A DNA stretch of 61,236 nt from an uncultured Erysipelotrichaceae bacterium. GTDB lineage: Bacteria > Bacillota_I > Bacilli_A > RF39 > UBA660. Made by a program: the position numbers and the translations under genes. The notes under the pieces are model-generated. The model was not told where the DNA came from. It searched no databases and saw only the letters and a program-made list of their open reading frames with translations. Shown here one piece after another: positions 1 through 38,175 of the stretch (its first letter is position 1; the number at the start of each line of letters is the position of its first letter). Location: the NCBI GenBank assembly GCA_902801795.1, contig CADCJQ010000004.1, forward strand, positions 1 through 61,236, in the 5' to 3' direction.

Positions 1-608
1 CATTCAGTAGTTGTTAATACGGTTCTTCCATCAACCCAATCACTTGTTGTACCCATATTATCTGATTCTGTTCCATCGTAAGTATCGCTTATAGCTACTA
101 AATCACCATCAATATAAACTCTTAAAGTAATTGTTCCATTGACGTTAGTGTTTGGTGGAATATGACCTACAGCAAATTCACTGTCATTTTGAAGGATTGT
201 TCCATCTTCATATGAATATAATGTAACTGAATTTGCTGGTAAATCACTACTTGTTACATTAACACTTAATGGAATAGATTTTCCATTAGTAGTTATTCTG
301 ACATTACTAGCAGTTACTTTAAAATCAATTCCTCCAGGATAACTTGTGTTTCCTTGAATAGATACATTAACTGTCATAACATTATTAGTATCAGTTAAAA
401 TATCTCCTTTATCAATTGGAAAGACATTTTCTAATGTTACTGCTGTATAATTACTATTAAAATAGATATTCCCTACCGCAATACTATTAGGACTTCCTGT
501 TCTTGTATAGTTGAAGAATGCGATTGATACTCCTACTAAGGTACTAACCAACATAAATATCCCTAATACTATAATTAATATTTTTTTCTTTTTATTACTT
601 TGTTCCAT
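1..608 (-). CDS. Surface protein, TasA/camelysin-like N-terminus (partial, cut by window start)
   Basis: The first 202 codons of a gene that runs off the left edge. The ATG at 608 follows an AAAGAGGT ribosome site. The product starts MEQSNKKKK, then has a hydrophobic segment and the AFFNYTRTG motif shared by all four surface proteins in this window, followed by a beta-rich TasA/camelysin-like region (SipW-type export, inferred from family). At DNA level 1-640 matches 2799-3438 with only scattered differences, so this is a tandem duplicate of the next gene. It probably also ends in a variable lectin-like domain, but that part is not in the window. Confidence 0.85.
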   Translation of the reverse strand, partial: MEQSNKKKKILIIVLGIFMLVSTLVGVSIAFFNYTRTGSPNSIAVGNIYFNSNYTAVTLENVFPIDKGDILTDTNNVMTVNVSIQGNTSYPGGIDFKVTASNVRITTNGKSIPLSVNVTSSDLPANSVTLYSYEDGTILQNDSEFAVGHIPPNTNVNGTITLRVYIDGDLVAISDTYDGTESDNMGTTSDWVDGRTVLTTTE

Positions 609-735: not shown

Positions 736-887
736 CACATAAATTAATGCGAGTATCTAGTTACTTTCAGAATATCCAATTGTAACATCTCCATTTATTG
801 TTTTAGTACTATGTACAAGGAATATAGTTTGTTTATAATCTTTTATAGTTAACTAACAATACCTAACTAATTAGTTTTTATAAGCTC

Positions 888-960
888 TAGGGCGATCACC
901 GTTCGCGTTAGTCGGATTGTTGCCGTTGCCATTGTTGTTCACGTTCCAGACGTTCGAGGT
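888..960 (-). repeat. Putative DGR template repeat (TR)
   Basis: This 73-nt GC-rich stretch lies outside any gene. Read on the minus strand in the frame of the neighbouring protein it is dominated by AAC/AAT codons (TSNVWNVNNNGNGNNPTN...), the hallmark of a DGR template. It aligns end to end with 1186-1264 and 1876-1954. Counting by eye, 22 of 24 substitutions in the two copies fall on adenines of this copy. It is two codons (6 nt) shorter than both variable copies at one place. Homology starts at ACCTCG and stops at CGCCCTA in all three. Between 608 and 1109 there is otherwise only the promoter, the terminator and a short non-initiating ORF tail near 772-867. No reverse transcriptase is in the window. 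Confidence 0.85.
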
Positions 961-966
961 TCCTTC

Positions 967-1007
967 ATTATACACCTATCAATCACTTGACATTATTTAT
1001 TATATCA
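967..1007 (-). promoter_or_regulatory. Possible promoter of the template-repeat RNA
   Basis: Two TATAAT boxes are present on the minus strand, at 967-972 and 999-1004. The second is an extended -10 (TGATATAAT). No convincing -35 box is seen. A start here and the stop at 705-735 would give an RNA of roughly 270-290 nt containing the template. Confidence 0.4.
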
Positions 1008-1057
1008 TATAATTCGGGACGCATTCCATATTTGACACTTATTTACATTATTGAAAT

Positions 1058-1086
1058 CCCCATAGGGTTTAGAAAACCCTATGGGG
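1058..1086 (-). promoter_or_regulatory. 13-bp perfect hairpin 3' of the variable gene
   Basis: A perfect inverted repeat, 13-bp stem with a 3-nt loop, lies 23 bases past the stop of the variable-protein gene and about 100 bases past the second variable repeat. No T run follows on the minus strand, so it is a weak terminator. DGRs such as BPP-1 use a hairpin/cruciform just 3' of the variable repeat for homing (family knowledge). That role here is inference. Confidence 0.55.
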
Positions 1087-1108
1087 AATAATGGTATATC
1101 CTGTTGTT

Positions 1109-3406
1109 TTATAATCCCACTACATACGGATCACTTTCTGTTCCAGATCCAGAAAGTATTTTAACCATAGATTTTAGATGAAGTGTAGGGCGACCACCGC
1201 TCGCGTTAGTCGGACTGCCGATGTCGCCGTAGCCACGGATGTGCACGAGCAAGACGTTCGAGGTTGAATATCTATTCATTAACCACATACTAATTGAATT
1301 AGAACTACCTCCTGCCTGTTGTGTTGCAAACATCTCGCCATACCTTGGCAACCCTATATTAAATGTACCAGTCTGACTTGTTTCATCACATACTTTTGTA
1401 TTCCCACTAGTTGTATTTGCACATACTGATAATTTATAATTATTATAACCACTTGTTCCTAGATAGTATGTGCCACTTGTAAATAATTCACCATACGTTT
1501 TTACTAACTTATCATAATAACCAGTATTACTAATATCACTATTATCTACTCTATTTAAATATTCATACCATGTATCTGTACCTATTGTTGTACCACTTCC
1601 CCATAATGTACTAGCAGTACCTGTACTTGTTGCGAATTTTCGTGTTCCTTTATTATCTGCATAATCCATTGCAATTATTTTGGTTTTATTATCTTCTACT
1701 CCAATTATTCTAAATACTTGTTCATTTTCATCATTTACAAGTTTTACATATTCGCCACTTAATCTTGTATTTATTAAGTCGTTAGTTTTTCCTATATCTT
1801 TATCCCCTACTATTTTATATGGGTTATCACGTGTTCCGACTCCGGTGAATTCCAATCCAGATTTTAGATAAATAGTAGGGCGAACACCGAACGCGCTAGC
1901 CGGATTGTCGTAGTCGCCGTTGCCACCGTAGTACACGCTCCAGACTTTCGAGGTATTATATGGATTTAATAGCCACCAAAAATATCCTATATTAAGATAT
2001 CCTGTACCACGAGTTGAGCCTGTACAAGCAGTACTTCCTATACAACGATAACTATTATAATATTCATAACTATTAAGTAATCCTACATTAGCAGTTACCA
2101 TATTATTTTCTAATGGTTTCGTGCTTATTGTGGTATTTGCTGGCATTGTAGCATTCCACCTCTTCGTTGTATCAATAAAATTGCTTGGTTGATATAAAGT
2201 ATCATAAAAATCTTCATTTAACCATTGATACATATATGATGTGGTATTTTCATCAGTATAGAAATTAACTTGTCCTGATTCATTAAATGCAATTAATGTG
2301 ATATTATTTTCAGTAATTAACTTCATTGTTCCATCAGGATATATAGCTGTTATTCGCCATAGTTTACCTGAATACCATACATAGTTAAAGTTGATACAAT
2401 CCTTGGTTCCTGAGAAATAAGTTATTTCATCTTCAACATATTTAATGTTTTGACATGTACCTGTTGCATGCTCATTGATAGCTTCTAATACTTTTTCTGA
2501 GCCTGATTGTTTTTTTATTACAGCATACAAAGTTGTATCACTATTAAAGTTAATGGTATCTCCTAATTTATATTCAACTTCCCCATCTGGTGTAGTACTC
2601 CATCCTCTAAAGTTAGGAACATCAAGAGATGCGGTTATGGTATCAGTTCCATCTCCTTTTAATGCTTGTCGTAATGGTGTACTTCCTAATAACTGATTTT
2701 TATTATAAGTTAGATAGCCGACAGCATTTGAATCATATACTCCTTCATCAGCAGATACTTTAACACTAAAACCAATTCCAGATGTTTGTAAAGCATTCCA
2801 TTCAGTAGTTGTTAATACTGTTCTTCCTCTTACCCAATCACTTGTTGTACCCATATTATCTGATTCTGTTCCATCATAGGTATCACTTACGGCTACTTGA
2901 TTACCATCAATATAAACTCTTAAAGTAATTGTTCCATTAACATTCGTATTTGGTGGAATATGACCTACAGCAAATTCTGAATCATTTTGAAGGATTGTAC
3001 CATCTTCATATGAATATAATGTAACTGAATTATTAGGTAAATCACTACTTGTTACATTAACACTTAAGGGAATATTTTTTCCATTAGTCGTTATTCTAAC
3101 ATTACTTGCCGTTACTTTATAATCAATTCCTCCAGGATAACTTGTGTTTCCTTGAATAGAAACATTAATTGTCATAACATTATCTGTATCAGTTAAAACA
3201 TTTGCTTTATCAATTGGAAAGACATTTTCTAATGTTACTGCCGTATAATTACTATTAAAATAGATATTCCCTACCGCAATACTATTAGGACTACCGGTTC
3301 TTGTATAGTTGAAGAAGGCTATTGATACTCCTACTAAAGTACTAACCAACATAAGTAGTCCTAATACCATAAATAAAGTTTTTTTCTTTTTATTACTTTG
3401 TTCCAT
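1109..3406 (-). CDS. DGR target surface protein with two tandem variable lectin-like domains
   Basis: 765 residues. Order: hydrophobic SipW/TasA-type N-terminus (about 10-35) with AFFNYTRTG; beta-rich camelysin-like region (to about 235); an InlB-type Listeria-Bacteroides repeat (about 245-298, motif GWSTTPDG); then two C-type-lectin/DUF6273-like domains (about 315-535 and 545-765). Each lectin-like domain ends in a variable repeat (residues 485-511 and 715-741) just before a G-x-RPT motif (GVRPTIYLKS, GGRPTLHLKS). Variable codons end in C or G, unlike the AT-rich body of the gene. Probably secreted and surface-displayed; ligand unknown. The start ATG has an AAAGAGGT site, with a TTGACT/TATAAT promoter at 3466-3495. 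Confidence 0.85.
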   Translation of the reverse strand: MEQSNKKKKTLFMVLGLLMLVSTLVGVSIAFFNYTRTGSPNSIAVGNIYFNSNYTAVTLENVFPIDKANVLTDTDNVMTINVSIQGNTSYPGGIDYKVTASNVRITTNGKNIPLSVNVTSSDLPNNSVTLYSYEDGTILQNDSEFAVGHIPPNTNVNGTITLRVYIDGNQVAVSDTYDGTESDNMGTTSDWVRGRTVLTTTEWNALQTSGIGFSVKVSADEGVYDSNAVGYLTYNKNQLLGSTPLRQALKGDGTDTITASLDVPNFRGWSTTPDGEVEYKLGDTINFNSDTTLYAVIKKQSGSEKVLEAINEHATGTCQNIKYVEDEITYFSGTKDCINFNYVWYSGKLWRITAIYPDGTMKLITENNITLIAFNESGQVNFYTDENTTSYMYQWLNEDFYDTLYQPSNFIDTTKRWNATMPANTTISTKPLENNMVTANVGLLNSYEYYNSYRCIGSTACTGSTRGTGYLNIGYFWWLLNPYNTSKVWSVYYGGNGDYDNPASAFGVRPTIYLKSGLEFTGVGTRDNPYKIVGDKDIGKTNDLINTRLSGEYVKLVNDENEQVFRIIGVEDNKTKIIAMDYADNKGTRKFATSTGTASTLWGSGTTIGTDTWYEYLNRVDNSDISNTGYYDKLVKTYGELFTSGTYYLGTSGYNNYKLSVCANTTSGNTKVCDETSQTGTFNIGLPRYGEMFATQQAGGSSNSISMWLMNRYSTSNVLLVHIRGYGDIGSPTNASGGRPTLHLKSMVKILSGSGTESDPYVVGL
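1186..1264 (-). repeat. Variable repeat of the C-terminal domain (VR2)
   Basis: 79 nt encoding residues 715-741. Against the template at 888-960 it differs at 11 template adenines and one other base (TGG to TTG), plus a 6-nt insertion. Adenine-specific change is what a mutagenic DGR reverse transcriptase produces. Confidence 0.85.
1876..1954 (-). repeat. Variable repeat of the internal domain (VR1)
   Basis: 79 nt encoding residues 485-511. It differs from the template at 11 adenines and one other base (AAC to AAA), with a 6-nt insertion at the same place as VR2. VR1 and VR2 differ from each other mainly at those adenine sites. Confidence 0.85.
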
Positions 3407-3465
3407 AATATACCTCTTTCATCTTCAAAACAAAACATTCAAACCTATTTCCCTCTACACTAAAA

Positions 3466-3495
3466 ATTATATACGCTTTTCTTATATTAAGTCAA
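3466..3495 (-). promoter_or_regulatory. Promoter of the variable surface-protein gene
   Basis: Minus strand TTGACT (3490-3495), an 18-base spacer and TATAAT (3466-3471), about 60 bases before the ATG at 3406. Identical in design to the promoter of the left-hand duplicate. Confidence 0.75.
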
Positions 3496-3540
3496 TAAAT
3501 AATTTCATTTTTATACAATGAATTTACATGAGGTGTAAAG

Positions 3541-3603
3541 TTGATTAATAAAATTAAAGAATTAAGAAAAGATTATGATTTAAAACAAGTCCAAAATACA
3601 TAA
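3541..3603 (+). pseudogene. Fragment of an XRE-family regulator gene
   Basis: After an aggtg ribosome site, a TTG-initiated 20-codon frame reads INKIKELRKDYDLKQ and then goes off and stops at 3601. It matches the first helix of the intact regulator that follows (LKRLKDLREDHDLKQ). It looks like the 5' stub of a duplicated regulator that lost the rest. Confidence 0.6.
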
Positions 3604-3703
3604 ATACCTCATATCTTTTATAAATATATTATACACGATATTTATTGTATGTTAAAATATTTTATATTATTTCTGATAAATTTTTATTAGTGAGGTAATT
3701 AAT

Positions 3704-3919
3704 ATGTATTTAAAAAGATTAAAAGATTTACGAGAAGATCATGATTTAAAACAAAAGGATATTGCAGAACTTCTTAATATATCCCAACAATATTATAGTG
3801 AGTATGAATTAGGTAAAAGAAGTATTCCTATTGAAATACTAATAACTTTATCAAAATATTATAAAGTATCAGCTGATTATATATTAGAACTTTCTGATAT
3901 TAAGAAAAGAAGACAGTAA
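3704..3919 (+). CDS. Small XRE-family HTH transcriptional regulator
   Basis: 71 residues, essentially one Cro/C1-type helix-turn-helix domain (LKDLREDHDLKQKDIAELL then QQYYSEYELGKRSIP). It follows a gtgaggt ribosome site. It has no C-terminal sensor domain. It is one of the very few plus-strand genes here, convergent with trmK and close to the DGR target promoter. Its target is not visible in the sequence. Confidence 0.9.
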   Translation: MYLKRLKDLREDHDLKQKDIAELLNISQQYYSEYELGKRSIPIEILITLSKYYKVSADYILELSDIKKRRQ

Positions 3920-3927
3920 TTAACAGC

Positions 3928-4578
3928 CTATCTTCTTTTTCTTATTTTAATATTCTCTATCATTAAATTAACTCTTTTTAGTTTATTCTTTAATGATAAA
4001 TTCGATAATATCTTTTTATTGGTATTATAGATTTCTTGATAATAATTTTTTACGATTTCATCTTGGAAATTAAGTTTACCAAAATAATAATTAATGTTAT
4101 CTTTTCCTTTAAGATAACAACTTACTAAATAATATTTTTCTTTTTCATAAACCATTACTTCATTATCTAATTTAAAACCATGTTTTGCTATTTCTTTTCG
4201 TGTTAAAGGAAAGTCATTATTTGGTGAAATAATTATCTTTTTGATATGAGGATATTTTTTGATATCTTTTAAAATATTAGTAATTGTTATTCCTCCCATA
4301 CCAGATATTACTATCGTATCTATTTCATCATCAATTGTTTCTAGTCCGTTACCTTGTTTTAAAAGAATTTTATCTTCTACATGATATTTTTTATTATTTT
4401 CCAAGGCTTTTTGAAGAGGTCCACTATTAATATCACTACTAATCATTTTTAAAACATTTTTATGAAGTACTAGGTCAATTCCTAATAATCCATGATCACA
4501 ACCAATATCAATTACTTTGTCATTTGAATTTATAAAAGCGCTTATTGTACTTAAGCGCTTATTTAATATTGTTTTCAT
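3928..4578 (-). CDS. trmK: tRNA (adenine-N1)-methyltransferase TrmK
   Basis: 216 residues of the TrmK/YqfN family, which methylates N1 of adenine 22 in tRNA using S-adenosylmethionine. The SAM-binding motif VIDIGCDHGLLGIDL is at about 22-36, and the VISGMGG motif at about 90-97 is typical. The start codon overlaps the rpoD stop (TAATG), so it is translationally coupled as last gene of the dnaG-rpoD-trmK operon, the usual order in Firmicutes. Confidence 0.92.
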   Translation of the reverse strand: MKTILNKRLSTISAFINSNDKVIDIGCDHGLLGIDLVLHKNVLKMISSDINSGPLQKALENNKKYHVEDKILLKQGNGLETIDDEIDTIVISGMGGITITNILKDIKKYPHIKKIIISPNNDFPLTRKEIAKHGFKLDNEVMVYEKEKYYLVSCYLKGKDNINYYFGKLNFQDEIVKNYYQEIYNTNKKILSNLSLKNKLKRVNLMIENIKIRKRR

Positions 4579-5672
4579 TAATCAGTTAAAAAATCCTTTA
4601 ATTTACGACTACGACTTGGATGTCTTAATTTACGTAAGGCTTTCGCTTCAATTTGTCTTATACGTTCTCTTGTAACATTAAAGACTTGTCCAACTTCCTC
4701 TAGTGTTCTACATTGTCCATCATCAAGTCCAAAACGAAGACGAAGTACTTTCTCTTCTCTTTCGGTTAAAGTTAATAAAACACCGGATAATTCTTCTTTT
4801 AACATTTCAATCGTTGTATATTCTTCAGGAGACATACTTCTCTCATCTCTTATGAAATCTCCTAAATGGGTATCATCTTCTTCACCAATAGGTGTTTCAA
4901 GACTTACTGGGTCTTGACTTATTTTATATACTTCACGAACCTTCTCTACTGATAAACCTATTTTCTTAGCAAGTTCTTCTTCGGTTGGTTCACGATTTAA
5001 TTCTTGTGTTAATTGTCTTTGAATACGAGCAAGTTTATTAATTGTTTCAACCATATGAACTGGTATTCTTATTGTTCTTGCTTGATCCGCAATCGCACGA
5101 GTTATCGCTTGTCTTATCCACCAAGTAGCATAAGTTGAGAATTTGTATCCTTTAGCAGGATCAAATTTTTCTACTGCTTTCATTAAACCAATATTACCTT
5201 CTTGAATTAAATCAAGAAATAACATTCCACGTCCTACATAACGTTTTGCAATACTTACAACAAGACGCAAATTACTTTCTGCAAGCATTCTTTTAGCGTA
5301 TTCATCACCTTGTTCTGCTTGTAGGGCATATTCATATTCATCATCACTTGATAAAAGATTAATACGTCCAATTTCCTTTAGATACATTCTAACAGGATCA
5401 GTTATTTTAATATCATCAGAATTCGTTAAATCTTCTAAGATTTTTTCTGGTGATTCATCACCTTCATCATCACCATCATTTAATCCTTCTTCTGAAACAA
5501 TTTGAATATGGTTATTTAAAAATGTATTGTATAAATCATCTAATGTATCAGAATCTAGTTCAAGTCCTTTTAACTCATCAGCAATTTGTTCATAAGTTAC
5601 ATAACCTTTTTGCTTTCCAAGTTCTATTAATGACTCTTTTCTTTCTTCAATAGTTCTAACTTCATTTACCAT
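4578..5672 (-). CDS. rpoD: Housekeeping RNA polymerase sigma factor (SigA/RpoD)
   Basis: 364 residues, normal for Firmicutes SigA. Region 1.1 is at 1-75. Region 2 at about 130-200 contains [18 protein letters not shown] and the -10 binding helix ([14 protein letters not shown]). Region 3 spans about 206-280. Region 4 at about 300-355 ends in [20 protein letters not shown], which reads the -35 box. The gene overlaps the dnaG 3' end by 7 bases and trmK by 1. Confidence 0.97.
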
Positions 5673-7402
5673 GATTTTCCCTCTTTCATTTTCAGTACTC
5701 TTACTTCTTCCATTAATTTCATTTGACGCTCAAGACTACTTTCTTCCTTTATTTCTTTCTCTAATTTTCTAATTTCAAGAGCTATATTATAATTCTTTAT
5801 TGCAATCAAACATTCATTAACTTGATTATCATCAATTATTTCTGGATAATCATTCGAAAGTATTTTTTTAAGTACTTCCATTAGACTTTTTTCTTCTTTT
5901 TGATTTAATAATGTATAAAAACTAGCTTCACTAATTTCACCATATTGATTATAATAAGAAACAATTTCATTAAAAAGTATTCTTATTTCTTTATTTGGTA
6001 TATATACATTACTATTATCAATTAAAGTAATTGCTCGAGTATAATTAAGCGAATAATAAATAAGTGATTCCATCGCCTTATTAAAACCATCTTTTTTGTC
6101 TTTTTTAACGACTAAATCTTCCTTTTTCACTACCATTTTATCGCTTGCTCGTAGTTCAATTAACTTTTTTTCCAAGGTATTATACCATACATTAGTATCA
6201 TTTGCAAGATTTTTTAACATTATTTCGCATTTAATTTCATCTTTTTCTTTAACAATTTCATCTAAAACTTTATTAACGTAATTGGTTTTATCATCAACAT
6301 CATTTAAATTATAATTTTTCTTTAAAGCCTTTATTTTATATTCGTTATAAGGAATCGCATTATCAATTAATTCTTTAAAACTATTTTCCCCATATTTTAA
6401 AATATAATCATCCGGATCTAATCCATCATTTAGGGAAACAACATATACTTTTGCCCCCATTGATGTAAAAACATCCCCTGACTTTAATGTTGCTTTCTTC
6501 CCTGCTTCATCACCATCATAACATAAATAAATAGCATTACTTAATTTTTTAATAAAGGATGCTTGTTCATTAGATAAAGCAGTTCCCATGGTGGCAATAC
6601 AATTAGTTACCCCAATCGTGAAAGATCTTATAACAGCCATAAAACCTTCCATAACAATAACGTATTTCTTTTTTCTAATTTCTTCTTTTGCACGATGGTA
6701 ATTATATAAATTCTCTCTTTTCTTAAAAATAGGTGTTTCTTTGGTATTTTGATATTTATTTAAATCACTATTATCATAAATTCTTCCGGAAAAGCCGATT
6801 ACCTTACCATCTTTATTATGCAAAGGAAACATAATTCGATTAATATAACTATCATGATTCGTACTTGATAAATCAATTAAATTAAGTTCTTCCAAAGAAT
6901 GCCCTTTATTAACTAAAAGATTGGTTAACATATCTGGTTTACTAAGTGATAAACCAATACCAAATTCATTAATAATCTCTTTGGTTAAATGTCTTTTTTC
7001 TAAATATTCTCTGGCTTTCACACCTTCCGTACTTACTAAATTATTTTGATAAAACTTATTAGCAATATCCATAATCTCATAATATTTTTGATATTTATCA
7101 TCTTCTTGTTTTGAAGTTATTCCCATATCCATACCAACAGATTTAGCAAGAATATTAACAGCTTCTATAAAACTAACATGTTCATAATTTTTAACAAAAT
7201 CAAAGGAATTACCACCTTCACCACAAACAAAACATTTATATATTTGTTTATCTGGTGATACAGAAAGACTTGGTTTATGATCATCATGAAAAGGACAAAC
7301 ACCAAAGTAATTACGTCCTTTTTTGGTAAGAGGAATATAATTAGAAATAACCGTTACAATATCTAATTTATTTTGTAATTCATTTAGTTTATCTTGATTC
7401 AT
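5666..7402 (-). CDS. dnaG: DNA primase DnaG
   Basis: 578 residues from the ATG at 7402, chosen because an AAGGTG ribosome site lies 6 bases before it (a GTG three codons earlier is possible). The N-terminal CHC2 zinc finger has [10 protein letters not shown] and CFVCGEGG. The TOPRIM core shows CYDGDEAG and DPDDYI. The first TOPRIM motif reads EGFMAV where the family has EG(Y/F)xDV, so a conserved aspartate is alanine here. The C-terminal helicase-binding region is present. First gene of the dnaG-rpoD-trmK operon. Confidence 0.95.
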
Positions 7403-24863: not shown

Positions 24864-26819
24864 TTAACTCACCTTCAAAATGTACGGAGAGGTATATGAC
24901 CCATCTCCCCCATTTAACAATATAGTGGATTCTAGATTAAGGACTGGGCGAACGGCGTCACCGTAATCACCATGACTGAAGTATCCAACGTAACCGGCAC
25001 CGTTCCAATAAGCCACAATCTGCGGAAAGTTAGAAGACGGAGACAAAAACCAATTATAATAAGCATCGTTATTTAAAAACCAGTTATCTCCTTGGATTGC
25101 TGGATTACTTGCATTCCAGTAATTATTTAACGTACTTATCCAATAACTACTACTTGCAGCGTATCCAAAATCACTTGGATATGGTAAGGCAATTTTTCCT
25201 TCCCATTCACTACTATTGCCATTCCATACATTACAACTATTATTTTGTGAATTACTAGTTATACTTGCAGCACATTCTTGAACAATTGCTCTTTCCAAAT
25301 CATAAGTTTGACTTGCTGTTCCATAACTAGATATATTTACATTTCTTAAATAATATGTATCATCAACAATTAAATTCTTATATGTAGAATTTATTGTATT
25401 ATAATAACTTCCCGTATTGTTTTCATTTAACCAATATTGAAGTCCTGCTTTTGCCCAATTATTTTTGGTATTAGATGAATCACTATTCCATGTAATTGGA
25501 GCATATTTTGCATTAGCCATAGGACTACTTCCAAAATTTTGCTTTATCATATAAGTTGTATTATTTAATGCTGTATATTGAACACCTGTTCCAGAATCTG
25601 TCATAAAACTATCTGATGTTTTTATTGGTACATCTTTCATTATTTTTACTTTATCACCAAATACTCCAATTATTCTCCATAATTCATTATTAAATGAAAT
25701 ATAGTTTTTTACTGTTCCATCTTGTACTCCTGTTCCAGAAACTAATGTATATGTTGTCCCTGTTGGAGCATTACCACCTTGATATGCTGCAATATCAGCT
25801 GTTGGTGTATATAGTCCTGGAGGACCACCACCAAATACTACGGTTTCTGGACACTCATTTCCTTCAATTTGAAGATTATATGTTGTTCCACCATTTTCAT
25901 AAGAACAATATCTTCCTCCACCAGAGTAACGATATTCTCTTATTGTATCAGATCCACTTGCTAAAGCACCACTTGTGTTAATTGCTACAACACCATCGTT
26001 TCCAAGTCTTGAAATAACTTTATCACCTAGTGACATTGGTGGTTCATCAACCCATATTCCTTCTTGGGCTTCTACTTTAACTTGAAATGATACTCCATTA
26101 GTTCTTAAACTATTCCATTCACTTGTTGTTAATACAGTTCTTCCTTGTATCCAACCTTCATTTTCATCACTTGTATCAGTAATAGCAACTAAAGAATTAT
26201 CAAAATAAGCTTTAATAGTTATTTTTCCATTAATAGAGTTATCAGTATTTGTTGCATCAGGTGCAATAAAACCTACTAAAATATACTCATCTCCTGTTAT
26301 TGTATTACCAATTATTTTTTTATAGTGAGATGTTGTATAAGTATCTCTATTTGCAAAATAATCATTATCACTTGTTCCTAAAGTATTATTAGTACCACTT
26401 CCATTAGTTCCAACTTGTACATCTAAACTAATTGGTACTATTTTAGTAGTATTACCTGATGTAATTGAAGCAGTTGTATTAGCACTTGATACTAAATATT
26501 CAACCCCATCACTATAAGTCGTATGACCATTAATTAATATTTCCACAGTATCAATATTATCATCATCAACATTTGTTATTAAACCATTATTATCTTTTGT
26601 TATTGATATTGGAAATGCATTAGTAAGGTTAATATTACCATTTTGAGTTGTTTCAAAAGTAATATTACCTAATTTAAGAGTATTACTTTCACCTGTTCTT
26701 GTATAGTTGAAGAACGCATAGGTAAAACCTCCTAACATTGCTATTAAAATAAATAAACCTAAATATATTTGTAAATTAAGTTTTCTATTTTGTTTTCTTT
26801 CTTCATTTAATTCATTCAT
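24864..26819 (-). CDS. DGR-target-type surface protein, one lectin-like domain
   Basis: 651 residues. A hydrophobic SipW/TasA-type N-terminus with AFFNYTRTGESN (about 31-42) and a camelysin-like region to about 260 are followed by a C-type-lectin/DUF6273-like C-terminus. That domain has YISFNNELWRIIGVFGDKV, GLQYWLNEN, WFLSPSSNFPQ and the closing AVRPVLNLES. The last part before AVRP is encoded by a GC-rich island of unlike codon use (24950-25045), the position of a variable repeat. Start after an aggagg site. Probably secreted; ligand unknown. Confidence 0.8.
   Translation of the reverse strand: MNELNEERKQNRKLNLQIYLGLFILIAMLGGFTYAFFNYTRTGESNTLKLGNITFETTQNGNINLTNAFPISITKDNNGLITNVDDDNIDTVEILINGHTTYSDGVEYLVSSANTTASITSGNTTKIVPISLDVQVGTNGSGTNNTLGTSDNDYFANRDTYTTSHYKKIIGNTITGDEYILVGFIAPDATNTDNSINGKITIKAYFDNSLVAITDTSDENEGWIQGRTVLTTSEWNSLRTNGVSFQVKVEAQEGIWVDEPPMSLGDKVISRLGNDGVVAINTSGALASGSDTIREYRYSGGGRYCSYENGGTTYNLQIEGNECPETVVFGGGPPGLYTPTADIAAYQGGNAPTGTTYTLVSGTGVQDGTVKNYISFNNELWRIIGVFGDKVKIMKDVPIKTSDSFMTDSGTGVQYTALNNTTYMIKQNFGSSPMANAKYAPITWNSDSSNTKNNWAKAGLQYWLNENNTGSYYNTINSTYKNLIVDDTYYLRNVNISSYGTASQTYDLERAIVQECAASITSNSQNNSCNVWNGNSSEWEGKIALPYPSDFGYAASSSYWISTLNNYWNASNPAIQGDNWFLNNDAYYNWFLSPSSNFPQIVAYWNGAGYVGYFSHGDYGDAVRPVLNLESTILLNGGDGSYTSPYILKVS
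24950..25045 (-). repeat. Putative variable repeat without a template in the window
   Basis: Codes residues about 592-624 (PQIVAYWNGAGYVGYFSHGD and on to AVRP). Bases such as GCC, GTC, TAC, TTC, GGC replace the A/T-ending codons used elsewhere in the gene. It matches the position of VR1/VR2 relative to G-x-RP, but not the template at 888-960, so its template would be elsewhere. Borders are approximate. Confidence 0.5.
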
Positions 26820-35677: not shown

Positions 35678-38062
35678 TCAGCCTATTCTATATGGAGATG
35701 TCGCTGTTCCATCACCATTCACTACAGGCGTTCCAGGTTTAAGTGAAACGGCAGGACGAAGACCGAGGGAATTGTACATGTAGTAGTGGTCGATGAAGCC
35801 ATTGACCACGCTGAACTCGACGGCGCCGTAGTCGTTGAAATAAGGGGGCGACAAAGACCAATAATAATTTGATCCACTATTTAAATAGAATGTTCCTGTA
35901 CTACCTGATCCTCCTGCTAATACCATTTCATCTATTGTTAGCATTGCTACTGGATAATTCAACTTTTGATTTCCATTTGCATTTTGCCATGTAAATGAAT
36001 CGTTCTTATTTGTACATGCTAGGCTTGGAGAATGATTTGTGAAATATCTATCATATCCTGCATAATGTAATGCCCCATACGCTACATTCCCTGTTGGATC
36101 CCATCCTGCTTTAGTTGATATTGTTCTATCATTACACCATATTGTATCTTCTAATTGATTTGTATAACTTGTCATATTTGATGCATACCAACTTTCTATT
36201 TGTGTTTTAGCATTTGATGGGTTTGTATTCATTTGCATTTTCTCTATTGCTTTTTCTACACTATCTCCTCCAGTTAATGTTATGTAATAATTATTACTTG
36301 TTCCACTTACAGAATAGTAATACCTTATGCTACTACATGTTCCTTCTGCAGTTGTTAAATTACATGTATAATGGTGTGTTCCATCATATCCTACTTGGGC
36401 ACTCGTTAATGTATAATTTGTTCCATCCCATGTAAATCCTGTTCCATAATATGCTCCTGATGTTGTTGCTTCATTTGTCCATTCATATACTTCTCCCCAC
36501 ATGTATCCATTATATGCTAATGATTTATACAAATTTGTTCCTGAAAAGGCAAATGTATTTGTTCCATTTAACGTTATTTGTGTATCTGTTCCAGTATTAT
36601 CACAACCATTCGATGTTAATAATTCACCAGGACCAATCATTTTAATTTTAAATGTTATAGAGCATGTATCACTTGAACTTCCTGTGTAATCCATTTTTAT
36701 TTTATCAATACTAGACAACGTCCCAAAATCATTAGCTAAATCCATGGCAGAACCCCCACCACCTCCATAACTTTTTACACTTGTTCCATTCTTATAAAAT
36801 GCATATGACCCACCACAACTTGAACCACTAGTACCTGTCATTATCATAGTATAATTATCTCCTGCTGGCACAGTGAACTCTAAAGCTGGGTGTGAACCAT
36901 CATTTATTTCTATATTCCATGTATTATCAGTTGAGTCAAAATTCCATCTTGCATCACTATTTGTTGCATCCTTCACATAACTTGTTTCAGGTAATGAAAT
37001 ACTTTCATAAACAGGTCCTGCTTCACCATTATAAATTAATTTAACTCCACCTGTATCAGTAGTTCTTACTGCTTTCCAACATTTATTAGCAAACAAAACA
37101 TTATTATTTTCTACTGCTCCTCGATAATACAATATTGGATTTGCATCATTTTCCGTACCTGCTCTCATATAGACACCTTTTCCATTTGTACTACTTGAAG
37201 TCGTTGAGAAATCTACACCTGTTGAAGCACTTACAAATTCACTTGCAACATTATCCATTATTGGTTGATTGGTTGTTGGATTTAAATTTTCAGTTTTCAT
37301 CATTTCTTCAAGTGATCCTTTTACCCAAATTCCTTCATTGGCTTCTACCTTCACTTGAAATGATATACCTGTACTTGAAAATGCATTCCATTCTGTTGTT
37401 GTTAATACAGTTTTACTTTGTGCCATAGAGTTTGTTGTTCCCATATTATCTGATTCAGTACCATCATAAGTATCAGAAATAAGTATTTTATTTTTGTCTA
37501 AATATGCTTTAATTGTTAATTTTCCATTTGATATTCCTTCAGCAGTTCCGCTAGTTGTATTAGGCTTAATATAACCTACTAAAAGCATTTGATTTCCAAC
37601 TAGAGTATCCCCTACTAATTTTTTATACATAGTAGTATCTTTGCTTTCTCTTGCTGTAAAATAGTTATTACTAGATGTTCCTAAATTAGTTACTGTTACA
37701 TCTAAACTAATTGGAACTACTTTTCCTGTTGATGTATAAATATTTGTATTTTCACTAGAAACTAAATATTCTACACCTTGGGCATAATCGGTATCACCTT
37801 CAATTTCAATTTCTAATGTACCAACTTTTGTAGCGTCAGACATTTCTTCACTATTTGTTGGATCTATTGGAAATAAATTTGTTAAACTAATTGTTTTAGT
37901 TTGTCGTGTTACAAAACTTATTCTTCCTACACTAACAGTATTTGCCACACCTGTACGTGTGTAATTAAAAAATGAATATGTTACTCCAACCACACCTATT
38001 AACAAGATTGCTATCCCAACAATTGAAAAAATTATTTTTTTGTCTTTGATTTCTTTCATCAT
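35678..38062 (-). CDS. DGR-target-type surface protein, large
   Basis: 794 residues from the ATG at 38062 (MMKEIKDKK, agaaaggt site; a frame to 38083 is unsupported). Hydrophobic N-terminus with SFFNYTRTGVAN, then a camelysin-like region to about 255. The middle has glycine-rich and Cys-containing stretches (YGGGGGSAMDL). The C-terminal lectin-like domain has YALHYAGYDRYFTNH, PVAMLTIDEMVLAGG, YYWSLSPPYF and closes GLRPAVSLKPG. Just before GLRP lies a GC-rich variable-repeat-like island (35750-35862). Probably surface-displayed. Confidence 0.8.
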   Translation of the reverse strand: MMKEIKDKKIIFSIVGIAILLIGVVGVTYSFFNYTRTGVANTVSVGRISFVTRQTKTISLTNLFPIDPTNSEEMSDATKVGTLEIEIEGDTDYAQGVEYLVSSENTNIYTSTGKVVPISLDVTVTNLGTSSNNYFTARESKDTTMYKKLVGDTLVGNQMLLVGYIKPNTTSGTAEGISNGKLTIKAYLDKNKILISDTYDGTESDNMGTTNSMAQSKTVLTTTEWNAFSSTGISFQVKVEANEGIWVKGSLEEMMKTENLNPTTNQPIMDNVASEFVSASTGVDFSTTSSSTNGKGVYMRAGTENDANPILYYRGAVENNNVLFANKCWKAVRTTDTGGVKLIYNGEAGPVYESISLPETSYVKDATNSDARWNFDSTDNTWNIEINDGSHPALEFTVPAGDNYTMIMTGTSGSSCGGSYAFYKNGTSVKSYGGGGGSAMDLANDFGTLSSIDKIKMDYTGSSSDTCSITFKIKMIGPGELLTSNGCDNTGTDTQITLNGTNTFAFSGTNLYKSLAYNGYMWGEVYEWTNEATTSGAYYGTGFTWDGTNYTLTSAQVGYDGTHHYTCNLTTAEGTCSSIRYYYSVSGTSNNYYITLTGGDSVEKAIEKMQMNTNPSNAKTQIESWYASNMTSYTNQLEDTIWCNDRTISTKAGWDPTGNVAYGALHYAGYDRYFTNHSPSLACTNKNDSFTWQNANGNQKLNYPVAMLTIDEMVLAGGSGSTGTFYLNSGSNYYWSLSPPYFNDYGAVEFSVVNGFIDHYYMYNSLGLRPAVSLKPGTPVVNGDGTATSPYRIG
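35750..35862 (-). repeat. Putative variable repeat without a template in the window
   Basis: Codes residues about 734-771 (from WSLSPPYFNDYG to LGLRPA). Almost all codons end in C or G (TAC, GGC, GCC, GTC, TTC, ATC), against the AT-rich body of the gene, as when an AAC-rich template has been randomised at adenines. Sequence differs from the template at 888-960. Borders approximate. Confidence 0.5.
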
Positions 38063-38175
38063 TTTAATACCTTTCTTTAACATAACATAATTTTATCATT
38101 GATGCTATTTTTTGACAATAATATCAACAAACATTTATTAAATCATTTTGCTATACGTGTATTTTTTCTGTTCTT

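What the first reader, a model, noticed from the sequence alone, without database searches (positions are those of the whole stretch)
888..1954. DGR template repeat beside a gene with two matching variable repeats
The 73-nt non-coding sequence at 888-960 (minus) is AAC/AAT-rich and aligns end to end with 1186-1264 and 1876-1954 inside the surface-protein gene. Counted by hand, each copy differs at 11 template adenines and one other base, so 22 of 24 changes are at A. At several codons both copies changed the same A to different bases (AAC to CAC and TAC; AAT to CGT and GGT; GAT to GGT and GTT). That is the signature of adenine-directed DGR mutagenesis. No reverse transcriptase or Avd gene is in the window, so the RT must lie outside it or act in trans.
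Basis: partly seen in the sequence, partly recalled or inferred. Interest (0 to 1): 0.95.

Follow-up and report, generated by a model that had tools for sequence, protein, structure and literature searches.

The report
Mutagenic template module without its enzyme
In a bacterium that is likely an uncultured gut dweller, a short non-coding DNA template matches two stretches of a neighbouring, predicted surface-protein gene almost everywhere except at its adenines, likely the work of a mutation-making reverse transcriptase that is not encoded on this piece of DNA; some relatives carry four to seven such templates, so one enzyme would probably serve several of them.

Summary
TR 888-960 (minus) differs from VR 1186-1264 and VR 1876-1954 at 11 of 24 adenines each, but at 1 of 49 other bases each. 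Across 52 aligned homologues, variation in both VRs sits at the adenine-bearing codons. The TR is followed by a ~150-nt conserved RNA tail (739-891) with covarying helices and no Rfam family.

The window is a whole contig without an RT. The only RT found in this 71%-complete genome, on contig C3, has its own TR and VR (23 of 39 A, 0 of 69 other), a different tail, and lies outside the RT clades found beside this tail. So the enzyme of this locus is unassembled or acts in trans; which one is open.

The larger result comes from the tail. Of 386 family genomes, 8 hold 25 copies, 18 of them with no RT in the stretch fetched. One 94%-complete relative has six modules and a single RT. Two of five VRs tested in such relatives fit mosaics of templates better than any one template. 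This is a DGR in a dispersed, multi-template form.

The parts
888..960 (-). Template repeat (TR), 73 nt, non-coding
   Evidence: Alignment to both VRs with 22 of 24 mismatches at TR adenines
739..891 (-). Conserved structured RNA tail of the TR (predicted RT-Avd recruiting part)
   Evidence: 93% identical over 156 nt on contig C9; models R1 and R2; 15 of 27 predicted pairs with changes on both sides in 7 sequences; no Rfam family
1186..1264 (-). Variable repeat at the 3' end of the target gene
   Evidence: 11 of 24 A and 1 of 49 other TR bases changed; entropy test
1876..1954 (-). Variable repeat in the middle of the target gene
   Evidence: 11 of 24 A and 1 of 49 other TR bases changed; entropy test
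1109..3406 (-). Target gene, 765 aa (P0001): N-terminal helix, beta domain, B-repeat-like domain, DUF6273 with VR, second VR domain
   Evidence: surface display inferred
3..608 (-). Second target-family gene, cut by the contig end; N-terminal part 92% identical to the first

Best explanation
The locus is the template-and-target half of a diversity-generating retroelement: a 73-nt TR followed by a ~150-nt conserved RNA tail, which is predicted to recruit a reverse transcriptase-Avd complex encoded off this contig, and whose adenine-mutated cDNA likely overwrote the two VRs of the neighbouring predicted surface-protein gene. Shown: the TR/VR pattern, the conserved covarying tail, the absence of an RT on the contig, an RT-Avd cassette on another contig, and the same TR-tail module in other genomes both beside an RT and without one in the stretch fetched. 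Inferred: that the tail recruits RT-Avd (by analogy with the Bordetella phage spacer), that the enzyme acts in trans or lies just beyond the contig end, and that the protein is displayed on the surface. My split for the enzyme: an RT of the tail's own clade missing from this 71%-complete assembly, possibly just past the cut paralogue at 3-608, about 55%; the C3 RT in trans, about 25%; RT lost and the locus frozen, about 20%.
For: 22 of 24 TR/VR mismatches at adenines, pooled P 6.9e-11. Variation among 52 homologues at adenine-bearing codons; residues that NNY codons cannot make are 48 of 1225 at AAC/AAT-derived columns against 3028 of 18833 outside the VRs. Tail with covarying helices, followed in L039 and G306:C19 by msl-like, Avd-like and RT genes. 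One RT with Avd-like gene, TR and VR on C3. Six tail modules and one RT in G366, 94% complete. Spacer role in BPP-1: PMC12875486 (passages).
Against: The present TR is 6 nt shorter than both VRs, so neither VR was written from it as it stands. The C3 RT is in a different clade and its own tail does not fit the model (2.4 bits over the full length). On C9 of the same genome the TR fits its own VRs poorly (9 of 53 and 11 of 52 non-A changes), and in G223 the RT-less TR found no VR, which looks like decay. No expression or read data.
Confidence: 0.8

Rival explanations
1. An ordinary cis DGR cassette broken by assembly: the enzyme genes lie just beyond contig base 1, after the cut paralogue, and nothing acts in trans at this locus.
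For: Contig C4 starts inside the second target-family gene, only 738 nt past the tail; genome 71% complete; in L039 and G306:C19 the enzyme genes follow the tail directly.
Against: The gene next to the tail here is a second target-family gene, 130 nt on, not msl/Avd/RT; the C9 module of the same genome has no RT gene in about 6 kb on either side and is followed by a W/Y tRNA synthetase.
Confidence: 0.4
2. A relic: the cognate RT was lost, and TR and VRs now drift.
For: 6-nt difference between the TR and both VRs; C9 TR and VRs already diverged; RTs beside this tail carry a stop in L039 and a split frame in G306:C19.
Against: Only 2 of 98 non-adenine TR/VR positions differ at C4 and the tail is conserved.
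Confidence: 0.2
3. Gene conversion or recombination among paralogues, without reverse transcription.
For: The gene belongs to a large paralogous family (74 matching stretches in the genome).
Against: Mismatches are confined to adenines of one strand of a non-coding copy (pooled P 6.9e-11); that copy is tied to a structured RNA tail that stands beside RT genes in relatives.
Confidence: 0.02

Closest known systems
Bordetella phage BPP-1 DGR (bRT, Avd, TR, VR, spacer)
   Same: Adenine-directed TR-to-VR change; a structured RNA 3' of the TR (PMC12875486, passages)
   Different: There all parts lie in one cassette; here TR, tail and target stand on a contig without RT or Avd, and the TR lies 3' of a target gene with two VRs
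Thiohalocapsa PB-PSB1 DGR loci with proposed trans action (PMC10907252, passages)
   Same: Nine DGR loci, some without RT or TR; two targets match the TR of another locus at all non-adenine sites
   Different: The passages seen speak of remote targets and broken loci, not of multiplied TR modules with a common RNA tail
Remote targets of cyanobacterial and Treponema denticola DGRs (PMC7517822 and PMC4891356, passages)
   Same: VRs far from the RT in the same genome
   Different: There targets are remote from a TR-RT core; here the TR itself is remote from the RT
Multi-TR DGRs listed by MetaCSST (PMC6642488, passages)
   Same: More than one TR per DGR (two TRs with six VRs; an atypical case with six TRs)
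   Different: The passages seen describe no conserved tail, no RT-less template modules and no mosaic VRs

Membership tests
Diversity-generating retroelement | TR/VR differences concentrated at TR adenines | tested here: met
   22 of 48 A against 2 of 98 other, P 6.9e-11
Diversity-generating retroelement | Non-coding TR, VRs inside an open reading frame | tested here: met
Diversity-generating retroelement | A DGR-type RT in the genome | tested here: met
   C3 RT: RVT_1, own TR and VR with 23 of 39 A and 0 of 69 other changes; best PDB match 8ub7, E 2.9e-22 (that this is the BPP-1 enzyme is recalled)
Diversity-generating retroelement | That RT acts on this TR | tested here: inconclusive
   Different RT clade and different tail speak against; no other RT found in the 71%-complete assembly
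Diversity-generating retroelement | Structured RNA 3' of the TR | tested here: met
   its role is inferred
Diversity-generating retroelement | Mutagenic retrohoming in cells | not testable with these tools
   needs reads or an experiment
Canonical cis DGR cassette (BPP-1 layout) | RT and Avd beside the TR | tested here: inconclusive
   No RVT_1 match on the contig, but the contig ends 738 nt past the tail
DGR target with C-type lectin fold | VR carried on a C-type lectin fold | tested here: inconclusive

The most novel reading that the evidence does not exclude
In this bacterial family the DGR template is a self-contained RNA gene (TR plus a ~150-nt structured tail) that multiplies and spreads through the chromosome apart from the enzyme. 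One RT draws on a library of up to six or seven different templates, and target genes become mosaics of templates on top of adenine mutation: combinatorial diversity made by a bacterial retroelement, with the window's module as one RT-less member.
Probability: 0.5. Interest if true: 0.85.

Novelty: new variant of a known kind. Interest (0 to 1): 0.72.

Why it matters
A large DGR survey says that its method would not detect targets remote from the RT (PMC8144416, passage). The RNA tail gives a handle that finds templates with no RT nearby, and it makes two questions testable: how an RT chooses its templates, and whether several templates can combine in one target. The host genome carries many paralogous predicted surface proteins (74 matching stretches), so the reach of one enzyme could be large.

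Tried and rejected
C3 RT as the proven partner: not accepted. Matches L027-L030 from the plain DNA search: four short matches among ordinary genes, taken as chance; none of the four genomes with an R1 match is one of these. A generic self-BLAST scan for A-biased repeats gave many AT-rich chance pairs and was used only as a lead for C3. The first alignment of VRs to TRs had wrong end-gap settings and was replaced. IMG/VR was scanned once with a tail pattern: 0 matches. G223's RT-less TR found no VR in its genome; this is weak, because the same kind of search recovered only one of the two VRs at C4. Of 22 VR-like gene ends in this genome, 19 have no clean template among the three TRs known; further TRs were not sought genome-wide for them. 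TR-to-TR differences in relatives are not A-biased. No strain variant of P0001 was among the 120 hits listed; P0011 there carries the same two VR ends as the C12 gene of this genome, so it gives no variation. No C-type lectin structure is named as such in the rows shown; this excludes nothing. The statement that RT-less dispersed TR modules with a common tail and mosaic VRs were not found in print rests on searches of an open-access library and on passages of eight papers; subscription papers and preprint servers were not searched.

Full report
1. Observation. The window is contig C4, entire, of an 81-contig, 1.51-Mb, 71%-complete genome. TR 888-960 (minus) and VRs 1186-1264 and 1876-1954 align end to end once a 6-nt gap is allowed: 11 of 24 TR adenines and 1 of 49 other bases differ in each VR. 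Pooled Fisher P is 6.9e-11.

2. The 6-nt gap. Both VRs are 79 nt, the TR 73. If the TR once had two more AAC codons, the gap bases follow by A changes only (14 of 28 and 13 of 28 A; 1 of 51 other in each). The TR of L036 is also longer at this place. So neither VR was written from the TR as it stands: either the TR shortened afterwards, or a longer sister TR, for instance behind the cut paralogue at 3-608, was the template (inference).

3. Variation in nature. No strain variant of the gene turned up (best hit other than itself 60% identical). Mean column entropy in the VRs is 2.98 at 15 A-bearing codons against 1.10 at 11 others (P 1.6e-5), and 2.95 against 1.36 (P 2.6e-5) (the two modelled AAC codons count as A-bearing). 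Residues that NNY codons cannot make (K, E, Q, M, W) are 48 of 1225 at 24 AAC/AAT-derived columns and 3028 of 18833 outside the VRs. This is the pattern expected of adenine mutagenesis, kept over homologues.

4. The RNA tail. A ~150-nt stretch follows the TR (739-891). It is 93% identical over 156 nt in a second TR-VR locus on contig C9, and 78% (148 nt) and 76% (170 nt) identical in L036 and L039. On seven sequences, 93.0% of cells pair (82.0% in shuffles, 34-44% when the partner is slid), 15 of 27 pairs show changes on both sides (6.3 in shuffles), covariation is 0.409 (0.187 +/- 0.028 in shuffles), with 0 of 500 shuffles reaching any of these; for further pair types 8 of 500 did. One of four helices hardly varies and says nothing. 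The structure came from the same alignment, which favours it. No Rfam family reached its gathering score; two chance-level microRNA matches lie elsewhere, at 1046-1099. In BPP-1 the spacer 3' of the TR folds, recruits bRT-Avd and primes cDNA synthesis (PMC12875486, passages); I infer the same role here.

5. The enzyme. One RVT_1 match exists in the genome, at C3:80023-80679. It sits in a full cassette of target gene, VR, TR, Avd-like gene and RT, with 23 of 39 A and 0 of 69 other bases changed between TR and VR. The Avd-like gene scores below the curated cut-offs (20.7 of 40 bits in Pfam, 22.6 of 80 in NCBIfam). The RT carries a C-terminal MutS domain I. A search with the RT piece of L039 again found only C3. 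In a tree of 17 RT rows, L039 and G306:C19, which stand beside the closest tails, form one clade with G392_C19 and G393_C5 (100/100), and own C3 with G002_C29 form another (99/99). The tail is not exclusive to the first clade: weaker matches stand beside RTs of a third clade (G366, 103 and 81 bits; G386:C22, 32 bits; G387:C15, 30 bits), and G392_C19 has one cut by the end of its stretch (72 bits), while none was found in the short stretch held for G393_C5. The C3 tail scores 2.4 bits over the full length. So C3 is a second DGR, not the evident partner of C4.

6. Like loci elsewhere. L039 and G306:C19 have target, TR, tail, msl-like ORF, Avd-like gene and RT in a row, but these RTs carry a stop and a split frame. 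G386, the genome of L039, has three other RT matches without a stop, on C32, C11 and C22. L036 ends at its contig edge inside the msl-like ORF. In G223 TR and tail stand without RT, and the RT cassette on C1 shows no TR between target and msl-like ORF. On C9 of this genome the module lies between a target gene and a W/Y tRNA synthetase gene; its TR fits its own VRs poorly (9 of 53 and 11 of 52 non-A changes) and a VR at the start of contig C13 better (11 of 21 A, 7 of 55 other).

7. Many templates. Model R2 over 386 genomes of the family gives 25 matches in 8 genomes at E <= 0.001: G215 7, G366 6, G300 4, G112 3, own 2, and G306, G223 and G272 1 each. Five of the 25 were in the model (own two, G306, G223, one of G366) and match by construction; 20 are new. 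G272 is doubtful: its match lies at a contig end and I saw no TR. RT, Avd or msl-like genes were found by tblastn in the stretch fetched for 7 of 25 (G306:C19 1, G366:C26 2, G300:C21 4) and not for 18 of 25. In the three RT-bearing loci the nearest RT starts about 0.7-0.9 kb after the tail; at least 5 kb downstream is held for 16 of the 18, not for own C4 and G272. G366 has six modules on four contigs and one RVT_1 match in a 94%-complete genome. RT numbers of G215, G300 and G112 were not searched.

8. Which templates write. Among fetched stretches only, VR G366:C26:14452 fits TR C26:15818 beside the RT (17 of 33 A, 1 of 78 other), and VR G215:C17:24509 fits TR C4:39711 on another contig (19 of 40 A, 4 of 76 other). 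Against the bold reading: the four RT-less modules of G366 match VRs with 6 to 11 non-A differences, and the three modules of G112 gave no A-biased match at P < 1e-3, so most RT-less modules are not shown to write. With all TRs of a genome as donors, two of five VRs are better explained as mosaics: G300 (two donors, 0 non-A mismatches against 2; gain 5.6, 0 of 300 simulations) and G366:C1 (four segments from three donors, 5 against 10; gain 19.1, simulated maximum 4.3). Two are not (G366:C26, G215:C17), and G215:C4 is unclear with many gaps (7 of 300). The simulation spreads substitutions independently, so clustered drift could mimic part of the gain.

10. Prior work. Trans action and RT-less DGR loci are proposed for Thiohalocapsa (PMC10907252, passages); remote targets are described for cyanobacteria (PMC7517822, passages) and Treponema denticola (PMC4891356, passages); several VRs per DGR by DiGReF (PMC3521204, passages); more than one TR by MetaCSST (PMC6642488, passages). 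I found no account of dispersed RT-less template modules with a common tail, or of mosaic VRs, in the searches named under Tried and rejected.

11. Verdict. The finding is real and correctly read as adenine-directed DGR mutagenesis. What is new is the module: TR plus structured tail, present without its enzyme here and multiplied in relatives. It is a new variant of a known kind; the enzyme of this locus remains unidentified.

Noticed in passing
window 35678-38083 and 24864-26819 (-): Two more target-family genes with GC-rich VR-like 3' ends (35691-35866 and 24924-25029), without a clean template among the three TRs known.
   Followed up: partly
L008:6790-8265 (C3): The C3 DGR RT carries a C-terminal MutS domain I; in L039, G306 and G366 an msl-like ORF lies separately upstream of Avd.
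   Followed up: no
L008:1310-3190 (C3): A large serine recombinase (Resolvase/Recombinase domains) lies upstream of the C3 DGR cassette, a possible vehicle.
   Followed up: no
L073 (G223:C1) 3188-6883: An msl-Avd-RT cassette with a target gene but no TR seen between target and msl-like ORF, while the TR-tail module of this genome stands on C20.
   Followed up: partly
L188 (G215:C37): Two tail modules 636 nt apart beside a 255-aa ORF that looks like a transposase (recalled likeness, not tested).
   Followed up: no
window 1-300 and 2799-3098: A 300-nt direct repeat, 90% identical, between the two target-family genes; a likely reason for the contig break.
   Followed up: no
L065 (G366:C26) 4740-6000: Two different TR-tail modules flank a 178-aa ORF upstream of one RT.
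   Followed up: yes
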